A DNA stretch of 64,000 nt from Campylobacteraceae bacterium (lineage in GTDB: Bacteria; Campylobacterota; Campylobacteria; Campylobacterales; Campylobacteraceae), in contig JAISAU010000007.1 in assembly GCA_031266555.1 (NCBI GenBank), positions 1-64,000 of the forward strand, read 5' to 3'. A program made the position numbers and the translations under genes. A model generated the notes under the pieces. That model did no database searches and was not told where the DNA came from. It worked only from the letters and a program-made list of their open reading frames with translations. The first letter of the stretch is position 1, and each line of letters opens with the position of its first letter. Shown piece by piece: positions 21,153 through 23,627 of this stretch.

Positions 21153-21344
21153 TTTACAAATCCGCCCCATTTTTATATGTACTTTTTATTGTTTATAATA
21201 TTTTCGCATTCAGTTTTTCTCGTCATTGCGGTAACTATCTATACGAACTATACGAAAACTTTACATGTAAGGTTTAGAGTTAGTAAAAATATGCGGATAT
21301 CATAAAAAAGAGATACCTGTAAAGGTTTTTGCATCTTTTTTTCT

Positions 21345-21379
21345 GGATTGCTTCGTCGTTAATGCTCCTCGCAATGACC
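21345..21379 (-). repeat. Short dispersed repeat, class B, copy 1
   Basis: Reverse orientation of a 35-bp element with ends GTCATTGCGAG and GCAATCC. The middle (GGAGCATTAACGACG) does not form the inner hairpin seen in class A. Confidence 0.8.
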
Positions 21380-21389
21380 TAATTTTTCC

Positions 21390-21424
21390 GTCATTGCGAG
21401 CAAACGAAGTTTGCGCGGCAATCC
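21390..21424 (+). repeat. Short dispersed repeat, class A, copy 2
   Basis: Ends GTCATTGCGAG / GGCAATCC. The inner hairpin is GCAAAC-GAA-GTTTGC (21400-21414) and the outer arms ATTGC/GCAAT (21393-21397 and 21418-21422) also pair. It opens the first unit of the 160-bp duplication. Confidence 0.85.
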
Positions 21425-21552
21425 ATCTCTACATGTAGAGCTTTTATCGTTTTACGCTTTTATATAAAAACATTCGCACATCTTATCTTTTATCTCAAAC
21501 ACAATATTTTCTCTTTCAATTCTTACATATAAGCTTTTCCGTCATTGCGAGC
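21390..21552 (+). repeat. 160-bp imperfect direct repeat, unit 1
   Basis: Runs from one class A element to the next and includes the shared stretch ATTCGCACATCTTATCTTTT and a following T/C-rich block. It matches unit 2 with scattered substitutions, offset about 425 bp. Confidence 0.85.
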
Positions 21553-21575
21553 AAACGAAGTTTGCGCGGCAATCC
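21541..21575 (+). repeat. Short dispersed repeat, class A, copy 3
   Basis: Identical to copy 2 over the 35-bp element, including the GCAAAC-GAA-GTTTGC hairpin. It closes the first unit of the 160-bp duplication. Confidence 0.85.
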
Positions 21576-21683
21576 AGAAAAACACAAACCAGAGCTATAT
21601 TTTTTGAAGAAAGAGATTTGTGTTATTTGTATCGTTAAATGTAAGATGATTTTGGAATTTAACTTTTGGAATGTTTTGTTTAT

Positions 21684-21717
21684 GGATTGCTTCGTCGCTA
21701 ACGCTCCTCGCAATGAC
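21684..21717 (-). repeat. Short dispersed repeat, class B, copy 4
   Basis: Reverse-oriented class B element, nearly identical to copy 1 apart from a few middle bases (CGCTAACGC instead of CGTTAATGC). Confidence 0.8.
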
Positions 21718-21814
21718 ACAATTACAATTCTTTGTCATTGTTAGAATATACGGAGTATCCACCAACATTCGTTCTCAAATCTTACATGCAGGTTGTAAGC
21801 TGCGTCTCCCATTT

Positions 21815-21980
21815 CGTCATTGCGAGCAAACAAAGTTTGCGCGGCAACCTATCTCTGTATGTAAGAGCTTTTGTCGTTTTGCACTTTGATATATAAAACA
21901 TTCGCACATCTTATCTTTTATCTCAAGCACAATATTTTCTCTTTTAATTCTTACATATAAGCTTTTCCGTCATTACGAGC
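21815..21980 (+). repeat. 160-bp imperfect direct repeat, unit 2
   Basis: Second, more diverged unit. It differs from unit 1 by single-base changes and small indels, so the duplication is not recent. The class A element at its right end is the compensated copy 6. Confidence 0.85.
21816..21850 (+). repeat. Short dispersed repeat, class A, copy 5
   Basis: Class A element with hairpin GCAAAC-AAA-GTTTGC; the outer right arm has drifted (GGCAACCT). It opens the second unit of the 160-bp duplication. Confidence 0.8.
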
Positions 21981-22002
21981 TGATAAAGTCAGCGCGGCAA
22001 TC
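21969..22002 (+). repeat. Short dispersed repeat, class A, compensated copy 6
   Basis: Same frame as the other class A copies, but the inner stem is GCTGAT-AAA-GTCAGC instead of GCAAAC-GAA-GTTTGC. Both arms changed together so that pairing is kept (one G-T wobble at the loop). It closes the second unit of the 160-bp duplication. Confidence 0.8.
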
Positions 22003-22105
22003 TGGGAAAATAGTTTTTAATAGTAGCAGTTTTTATAGTTTAGATTTGATGTAATATTAGCTCTTACATGTAATAGCGACTTGTCGCATGCACATATATA
22101 TTATT

Positions 22106-22140
22106 GTCATTGCGAGGAGCATTAGCGACGTGGCAATCCA
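22106..22140 (+). repeat. Short dispersed repeat, class B, copy 7
   Basis: Forward class B element, GTCATTGCGAGGAGC at the left and GGCAATCC at the right. Confidence 0.8.
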
Positions 22141-22229
22141 TATGAAATCGACGACGAACCAATCCGTAAACCAACAATTCCTTAAAATAAATAGTTACGG
22201 TAAAAATGTTACTTTTATATTGATTTTGT

Positions 22230-22257
22230 TATAATAAGTAGAAATTCATTTATGAAT
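22230..22257 (+). promoter_or_regulatory. Promoter and candidate operator of GLUG lipoprotein
   Basis: TATAAT at 22230-22235 after a T-rich stretch, then the inverted repeat ATTCAT-TT-ATGAAT at 22244-22257, near the expected transcription start. A regulator binding there is possible. Confidence 0.45.
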
Positions 22258-22338
22258 TCATCTTAAATTACAGGAGGTCTACATGTTGTCTTCAGTGACC
22301 AAATTTAAAGTTTTATCCTTGTTTAAGTTTAAAGCGTT

Positions 22339-22356
22339 CTCTCTCTCTCTCTCTCT
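22339..22356 (+). repeat. (CT)9 dinucleotide tract in signal-peptide codons
   Basis: Nine CT units encode the Ser-Leu run of the signal peptide. The unit length of 2 means that any gain or loss shifts the reading frame. With ten units the frames of start codon and lipobox agree. Confidence 0.9.
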
Positions 22357-22365
22357 TAGTTGCTC

Positions 22366-22373
22366 TTTTTTTT
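22366..22373 (+). repeat. T8 homopolymer tract just behind the CT tract
   Basis: Eight T residues, immediately before the stop codon of the OFF frame. Loss of one T would also restore the lipoprotein frame, giving a slightly poorer hydrophobic core. Confidence 0.75.
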
Positions 22374-23627
22374 AGTTTTTCATTAGTTGGTTGTGGTGGA
22401 GGCGGAGGTTCGTCAAGTCCGAATAACTCTCCGAGTGCAACTCATTCTATAAGTTTCTATGATGAAAACTTAGATTTTATAGAAACTATATCTGTGGAAC
22501 AAGGTGCAATCAACCTTTCAGATGTCAAGTTAGGCGTATGGTACAAAGCGGGTGAGAATACTCCCTTGACAAGTCATAATCTGGATAGCGATACGGCTCT
22601 TTATGCTGTAGCGAATATAGTCGAGATAACCTCTCAAGACGAGTTAGCTTCTATCAATACCGATAGTGTTACTCTTGCTGGTAAATACATCTTGTTAAAC
22701 GATATAAACCTAGATGAAAGTGGAGCTGGCTTTGAGGATACATTAGGTTGGATACCGATAGGAAACTTGTCAGATAAGTTCACAGGTATTTTTAACGGTA
22801 ATTTCCACAAAATAACAAATATGTGGACAAATAGAACATCTACTTATCATGTCGGATTTTTCGGCTCTACTGACAACGCTCAGATAAAAAATCTTGGAGT
22901 TGAGATAGCTGAGGGAATGGAGATAAGAGGATTTTACGGTATTGGCGGTATCGCGGGATTTATTTCCCATAGTAATATAACCAATGTTTACTCAGTCGGA
23001 AATATTAGCGGTTATAGTTCTGTCGGCGGTATCGTTGGATATGTTTCCAATAGCAATATAGCCAACGCTTACTCAACAGGAAATATCAATGGCAACAATT
23101 CTGCTGCTGGCGGCATTGTAGGGGATGCTGGCTACATCAATATAACTAATGCTTATTCAACTGGAAATGTCAGTAGCTATTGGGCTACTGGAGGTATTAT
23201 AGGATATTTTTACATCGGCATTGTAACCAATGTTTACTCAACGGGAAATATCAGCGGTTACAATTATATAGGCGGTATAGCAGGACGTATTTATGATAAT
23301 TCCAACGTTTCCAATGTAGCTGCTATCAATGGTTTGGTTAGCGGAAACAGTGAGGTAAATCGCGTTGCCGGAGGACATATAAGCGTTGCTTCAAACAATT
23401 TCGCGTTAAATAGTATGAGCGGCAGTTTTTCAAATAGCGGCGATATAAAATATCATGGGACAGACAAAACCGAAGCCGAACTAAAAATACAAGAGACTTA
23501 CTTAAACGATTTAAGTTGGAATTTTGGAAATAACGCCGATAATCCTTGGGTTTGGGGAGCGTTTGAAGGTTACGCTTATCCTACTCTTTATTGGCAGACA
23601 CAAAAACCGTAATATAAGTTTTTAAAC

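What the first reader, a model, noticed from the sequence alone, without database searches (positions are those of the whole stretch)
22283..22500. Contingency locus: CT tract controls a GLUG lipoprotein
A good start with AGGAGG and a lipobox sequence are in different frames, separated by (CT)9 and T8. One more CT unit restores a full surface lipoprotein with a standard hydrophobic core. Dinucleotide tracts inside signal-peptide codons are classic phase-variation switches of surface proteins in host-associated bacteria, but CT repeats in Campylobacterota are less usual than poly-G tracts. The state here is OFF.
Basis: partly seen in the sequence, partly recalled or inferred. Interest (0 to 1): 0.72.

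Follow-up and report, generated by a model that had tools for sequence, protein, structure and literature searches.

The report
Phase-variable lipoprotein switch in termite bacteria
A stretch of repeated CT letters inside the start of a surface-protein gene acts as a random on/off switch, it is off in this sequence, and the same switch sits in dozens of related surface-protein genes across a genus of termite-gut bacteria.

Summary
ATG 22283 (AGGAGG) runs into (TC)9.5 at 22338-22356 and stops at 22373. The lipobox and GLUG frame (22356-23612) is open for 418 codons, has no start of its own before its Cys, and lies in another frame: OFF as assembled. Such a tract is expected about 4e-7 times in this 1.52 Mb genome.

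It belongs to a system. In 14 genomes of one genus (relatives are termite-gut "Campylobacteraceae" MAGs), 31 lipoprotein genes with a clear start carry the tract at the same place in the signal peptide. Their frames fall 10/9/12 over the three phases (10 ON, 21 OFF), as free slippage predicts. Tract-less homologues, one in this genome, are intact and confirm start and frame. Bodies are under purifying selection. The same signal cassette precedes unrelated bodies (GLUG beta-solenoid, RCC1 propeller, unknowns).

The mechanism is the known one of H. pylori oipA/sabA/hopZ; lipoproteins, host, scale and modularity differ. A second class found on the way is more novel: an (AG)n tract in a leader ORF whose long frame ends at the start codon of a downstream gene, mostly a lipoprotein, suggesting phase-variable translational coupling. 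Read-level variation could not be tested.

The parts
22230..22235 (+). TATAAT, probable promoter -10 box
   Evidence: A TATAAT-like box recurs about 50 nt upstream of the ATG in most of 22 homologues lined up; inferred, no transcript data
22243..22258 (+). 5'-UTR palindrome AATTCA-TTTA-TGAATT, possible mRNA hairpin
   Evidence: 15 of 17 homologous leaders hold a stem of at least 5 bp here against 5.9 in shuffles, with changes on both arms (ATTCAT/ATGAAT, ATTCAC/GTGAAT, ATTTAC/GTAAAT)
22272..22277 (+). Shine-Dalgarno AGGAGG
   Evidence: Sequence
22283..22375 (+). ORF translated in the assembled (OFF) state: 30 codons from ATG to TAG
22338..22356 (+). (TC)9.5 contingency tract, encodes (SL)n in the hydrophobic core of the signal peptide
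   Evidence: homologous tracts in 31 scored genes; expected 4e-7 per genome
22366..22373 (+). T8 run, possible minor slippage site, not conserved in homologues
   Evidence: Sequences
22383..22394 (+). Lipobox LVGC; lipidated Cys codon 22392-22394
   Evidence: Translation; same motif in homologues
22356..23612 (+). Open frame of the GLUG lipoprotein (418 codons plus stop), out of frame with the ATG in this assembly
   Evidence: AlphaFold model mean pLDDT 89.8, beta-solenoid
23010..23090 (+). GLUG motif, Pfam PF07581
   Evidence: hmmscan E 9.8e-12, residues 219-245

Best explanation
This is a translational contingency locus. Slipped-strand mispairing at the TC tract changes its length in steps of 2 nt; only one residue class modulo 3 joins the strong start at 22283 to the lipoprotein frame. 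In the other two classes the ribosome stops a few codons after the tract and no lipoprotein is made. In frame, the repeat encodes extra Ser-Leu pairs in the hydrophobic core of a lipoprotein signal peptide, so length can vary without losing export, and a GLUG beta-solenoid on a Gly/Ser linker is lipidated and exported. The assembled allele is OFF. It is one of at least three such genes in this genome and one of about thirty found in the genus, which together make a combinatorial surface repertoire. Shown: anatomy, frames, homologous tracts of differing length, phase distribution, selection on the body. Inferred: slippage as the cause, switching in a living population, lipidation, surface exposure, function in the termite gut.
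For: Tract, start and frames. Rarity. Three loci of the own genome carry the tract in the same signal peptide, all out of frame (C14:22338, C14:141449, C13:107965). Genus-wide: 31 genes with a Shine-Dalgarno ATG, phases 10/9/12, ON 10 against 10.3 expected (p = 1.0). Intact tract-less homologues with the same signal peptide: own genome C12:57479 (445-aa frame) and G005:C3, G004:C59, G001:C33. Body open for 418 codons, dN/dS about 0.34 against the G005 homologue, 0.23-0.49 in the other pairs. 20 TC tracts from other genera of the family: none in a lipoprotein signal peptide. Fold: nearest solved structure 3n6z, a Bacteroides ovatus protein labelled putative IgA1 protease, E 8.5e-8. Known precedent for CT tracts in signal-peptide codons: PMC10564699, PMC3960876.
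Against: No reads, no second strain of the same species and no expression data, so variation within a population is unproven. All three tract genes of this genome are OFF (chance about 0.3). dN/dS reflects long-term history, not the present allele. Lipidation and outer-membrane location rest on motif inspection only.
Confidence: 0.88

Rival explanations
1. Dead gene: the frameshift is fixed and the locus is a decaying pseudogene.
For: The assembled allele is out of frame; the other tract genes of this genome are too.
Against: 418 codons without a stop; codon-position pattern and dN/dS of coding sequence; promoter box, Shine-Dalgarno and signal peptide intact; homologues with the same tract in frame in other genomes.
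Confidence: 0.04
2. Assembly or sequencing error: the true allele is in frame and constant.
For: Metagenome assembly, 25 contigs, 74.6% complete; repeats can be mis-sized.
Against: Relatives' contigs are named k119, a MEGAHIT-style label that suggests short reads, in which 19 nt is easily spanned (inference); 21 of 31 homologous genes in independent assemblies are out of frame, spread evenly over phases, while tract-less homologues are intact.
Confidence: 0.04
3. Recoding: RNA polymerase or ribosome slippage at the TC or T8 run makes some full-length protein at all times.
For: T8 directly follows the tract and slippage there is possible; recoding of this sort is known in bacteria (own knowledge).
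Against: T8 is not conserved among homologues; a recoding site would hold a fixed phase, but the three phases are used equally.
Confidence: 0.04

Closest known systems
Helicobacter pylori oipA (hopH) and related genes sabA, hopZ, babA/babB
   Same: CT dinucleotide tract in the 5' (signal-peptide) codons of a surface-protein gene; frame set by repeat number; same phylum (PMC10564699, PMC3960876)
   Different: Those encode outer-membrane Hop proteins; here the product is a lipoprotein with a GLUG solenoid, in termite-gut bacteria, with one signal cassette shared by unrelated bodies
Campylobacter phasome (SSR-driven phase-variable genes)
   Same: Large set of SSR contingency genes per genome; the 6-unit dinucleotide cut-off is exceeded here (PMC6321876)
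   Different: 91% of Campylobacter SSRs are poly-G/C and dinucleotides are rare; here TC tracts are concentrated in lipoprotein genes, beside poly-G
GLUG-motif proteins: B. ovatus 3n6z and the GLUG region of M26 IgA1 proteases
   Same: PF07581 match and best fold matches
   Different: No peptidase M26 match; only the solenoid part resembles them
Mycoplasma variable lipoproteins (Vlp, Vpma)
   Same: A family of surface lipoproteins with independent ON/OFF states, giving combinations (PMC11868660)
   Different: Switching there is by other means (recombination for Vpma); here by TC tract length in the signal peptide

Membership tests
SSR contingency (phase-variable) locus | Uninterrupted simple repeat above the slippage threshold (6 or more dinucleotide units) | tested here: met
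   (TC)9.5; threshold in PMC6321876
SSR contingency (phase-variable) locus | Change of one unit shifts the frame between start and body | tested here: met
   Three-frame translation
SSR contingency (phase-variable) locus | Body intact and under selection although out of frame | tested here: met
   418 open codons, dN/dS about 0.34
SSR contingency (phase-variable) locus | Repeat number differs among homologues, with ON and OFF alleles | tested here: met
   31 genes, 11-27 nt, phases 10/9/12, (a 32nd gene with a 31-nt tract has no clear start)
SSR contingency (phase-variable) locus | Repeat number varies within one population and expression switches | not testable with these tools
   No reads or isolates available
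Bacterial lipoprotein (signal peptidase II substrate) | Basic n-region, hydrophobic core, lipobox with Cys | tested here: met
   By inspection: MLSSVTKFK..FKFKAF and SLSLLVALFFSFSLVGC read from the two frames, contiguous in tract-less homologues; no signal-peptide program was run
GLUG-motif protein (PF07581) | Match above the Pfam gathering score | tested here: met
   44.9 bits against 20.5
Helicobacter Hop/OipA family | CT tract in signal-peptide codons | tested here: met
Helicobacter Hop/OipA family | Outer-membrane beta-barrel Hop protein | tested here: not met
   Lipobox and beta-solenoid model
Peptidase M26 (IgA1 protease) | Peptidase M26 domain | tested here: not met
   Only PF07581 matches; resemblance limited to the solenoid

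The most novel reading that the evidence does not exclude
The genus uses one repeat unit, (TC/AG)n, in two switch designs. In the first, a phase-variable signal-peptide cassette, homogenised within genomes, is fitted to unrelated lipoprotein bodies. In the second, the tract lies near the start of a 60-130-codon leader ORF; in one phase this ORF stays open until it ends at the start codon of a downstream gene (mostly a lipoprotein) or runs into it, and in the other two phases it usually stops within about 20 nt. Expression of the downstream gene would then switch through translational coupling or polarity rather than by a frameshift in the gene itself.
Probability: 0.5. Interest if true: 0.75.

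Novelty: new variant of a known kind. Interest (0 to 1): 0.62.

Why it matters
Large SSR phase-variation repertoires are known mostly from vertebrate pathogens and commensals; a 2025 review notes that this may reflect database bias (PMC11868660). Here is a large, genus-wide repertoire in bacteria whose relatives come from termite guts, so selection for random surface variation does not need an adaptive vertebrate immune system. Phages, gut protists, insect immunity or rival bacteria become testable drivers. Gene callers also lose these proteins: in the OFF state the annotated start falls after the lipobox, so the repertoire is probably under-counted in MAGs.

Tried and rejected
The T8 run as the main switch: not conserved. 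An alternative start in the lipobox frame: none before the Cys. Recombination inside G005: the identical 94 nt before the tract at the ends of C10 and C13 and inside C30, followed by three different bodies, first looked like cassette switching; C10 and C13 share exactly 119 nt (94 plus 25 of tract), which is what a k=119 assembly break gives, so it shows near-identical 5' ends but not switching. MAFFT did not align the 5' hairpin arms, so stems were counted directly.

Full report
Observation. A strong start (AGGAGG, ATG 22283) opens MLSSVTKFKVLSLFKFKAFSLSLSLS, enters (TC)9.5 at 22338-22356 and ends at TAG 22373-22375. The lipobox frame (LVALFFSFSLVGC, then GGGGGSSS) is open from before the tract to 23612 and has no ATG, GTG or TTG before GTG 22494, which lies beyond the Cys. 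A first-order model expects 4e-7 TC tracts of at least 19 nt in 1.52 Mb. The whole genome (25 contigs, 74.6% complete) has six TC/AG tracts of at least 11 nt against 0.16 expected.

Organism. The window's genome belongs to a genus with 13 other held genomes. The named relatives that carry the lipoprotein are 'Campylobacteraceae bacterium' MAGs such as Gx485_bin81 and Kf353_bin114. These sample codes are termite guts: Gx485 is Glyptotermes sp. and Kf353 Kalotermes flavicollis (PMC11707648). The window's own host was not identified.

Same switch elsewhere in the genome. Three of the six tracts lie at the same codons of homologous signal peptides: this gene, C14:141449 and C13:107965; all three are out of frame. 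A homologue without the tract (C12:57479, MLSSMTNLKALCLFRFKAF-SLLVALFLSFSLIGC, 445-aa frame) is intact and shows which start and frame are the natural ones.

Same switch in the genus. Pattern searches and a signal-peptide search led to 32 lipoprotein genes with a tract of at least 11 nt in the signal-peptide codons; 31 have a clear Shine-Dalgarno ATG and lengths of 11-27 nt. The body lies in phase 0, 1 or 2 relative to the ATG in 10, 9 and 12 genes. Equal use of the phases is what free slippage gives; a recoding site or a fixed N-terminus would not. Homologues without the tract are intact. Among 20 TC tracts taken from other genera of the family, none lies in a lipoprotein signal peptide, so in the family sample examined the device is a feature of this genus.

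Selection. Between this body and its G005 homologue dN is 0.28 and dS 0.81; seven other pairs, several of them with OFF alleles, give dN/dS of 0.23-0.49. The open frames are maintained.

What is switched. The body matches GLUG (PF07581). AlphaFold on ten homologues gives a confident beta-solenoid (mean pLDDT 89.8), closest to 3n6z and to the GLUG region of M26 IgA1 proteases; there is no M26 domain. Other genes with the same signal cassette carry GLUG bodies, an RCC1 propeller (L086) or bodies without a Pfam match. In G003 several copies share an N-terminal insertion not seen elsewhere (DLSLIGHRV), which suggests that the cassette is homogenised within genomes.

Upstream parts. Most homologues have a TATAAT-like box about 50 nt before the ATG and a short 5'-UTR palindrome whose arms change together (15 of 17 with at least 5 bp against 5.9 expected). 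These are inferences about promoter and mRNA stability.

A second design. Other TC tracts of the genus read as (AG)n on the coding strand. Thirteen loci were first examined, then more. In most a short ORF starts 26-31 nt before the tract (for example MIKINLRIFA-(RE)n). In one phase it stays open and its stop lies -12 to +19 nt from the start codon of the next gene in 11 of 14 loci tested, is fused in frame with it in 2, and stops 68 nt short in 1; in the other two phases it stops within 18 nt of the tract in all but one locus. Most downstream genes are lipoproteins. Shuffled leaders seldom do this (0-19% per locus). Some loci are syntenic between species, so they are not all independent. Two loci are in this genome (C24:12222, C16:30285). 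Phase-variable translational coupling or polarity is the obvious reading; with the homologous start only about one locus is ON, so the true start is not certain. Two further loci with such tracts (L082, L083) do not fit the pattern.

Comparison with the known. Mechanistically this is the H. pylori oipA type of switch (PMC10564699, PMC3960876), so the principle is not new. The genus Campylobacter relies mainly on poly-G/C (PMC6321876). New are the lipoprotein target, the shared cassette on unrelated bodies, the scale in termite-gut bacteria, and probably the leader-ORF design. A library search for a phase-variable upstream ORF with coupling found no direct precedent, but that library is incomplete.

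Limits. No reads, isolates or expression data were available. Lipidation and surface exposure are inferred from motifs.

Noticed in passing
L038 (G000:C24:12222), L036 (G000:C16:30285), L093, L098, L105, L113, L114, L116, L235, L246, L248, L073, L102: (AG)n tract in the 5' part of a leader ORF whose long phase ends at (-12 to +19 nt) or is fused with the start of a downstream gene, mostly a lipoprotein; a candidate phase-variable translational-coupling switch.
   Followed up: partly
L226, L230, L237, L247 (G004, G007, G002): TonB-receptor-like genes (by eye) with (AG)n directly after the start codon (ATG-AGAGAG...), probably phase-variable receptors.
   Followed up: no
L034 (G000:C14:100100) and L229, L249, L252: A TetR-like gene (by eye) with a (GA)n tract in its 3' part, directly upstream of an RND adaptor-like lipoprotein gene, seen in four loci of the genus.
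   Followed up: no
G000: C13:56816, C13:106068, C14:108138, C17:57768, C18:13589, C21:15863, C21:139148: Seven poly-G tracts of 9-15 nt against 0.7 expected: further likely contingency loci in this genome.
   Followed up: no
window 21336-22147: Intergenic region between hypF and the lipoprotein is full of REP-like palindromic repeats (CGTCATTGCGAGCAAACGAAGTTTGCGCGGCAATCC and relatives), four direct copies plus inverted ones.
   Followed up: partly
L123 (G008:C46:9000-28990): A tandem array of about a dozen GLUG lipoprotein genes in one genome, 47 matches in all in that genome.
   Followed up: no
L109, L110, L112 (G005 C10, C13, C30): Three lipoprotein genes with identical 94 nt before the tract but different bodies, at contig ends: near-identical 5' ends that break the assembly, possibly gene conversion of the cassette.
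   Followed up: partly
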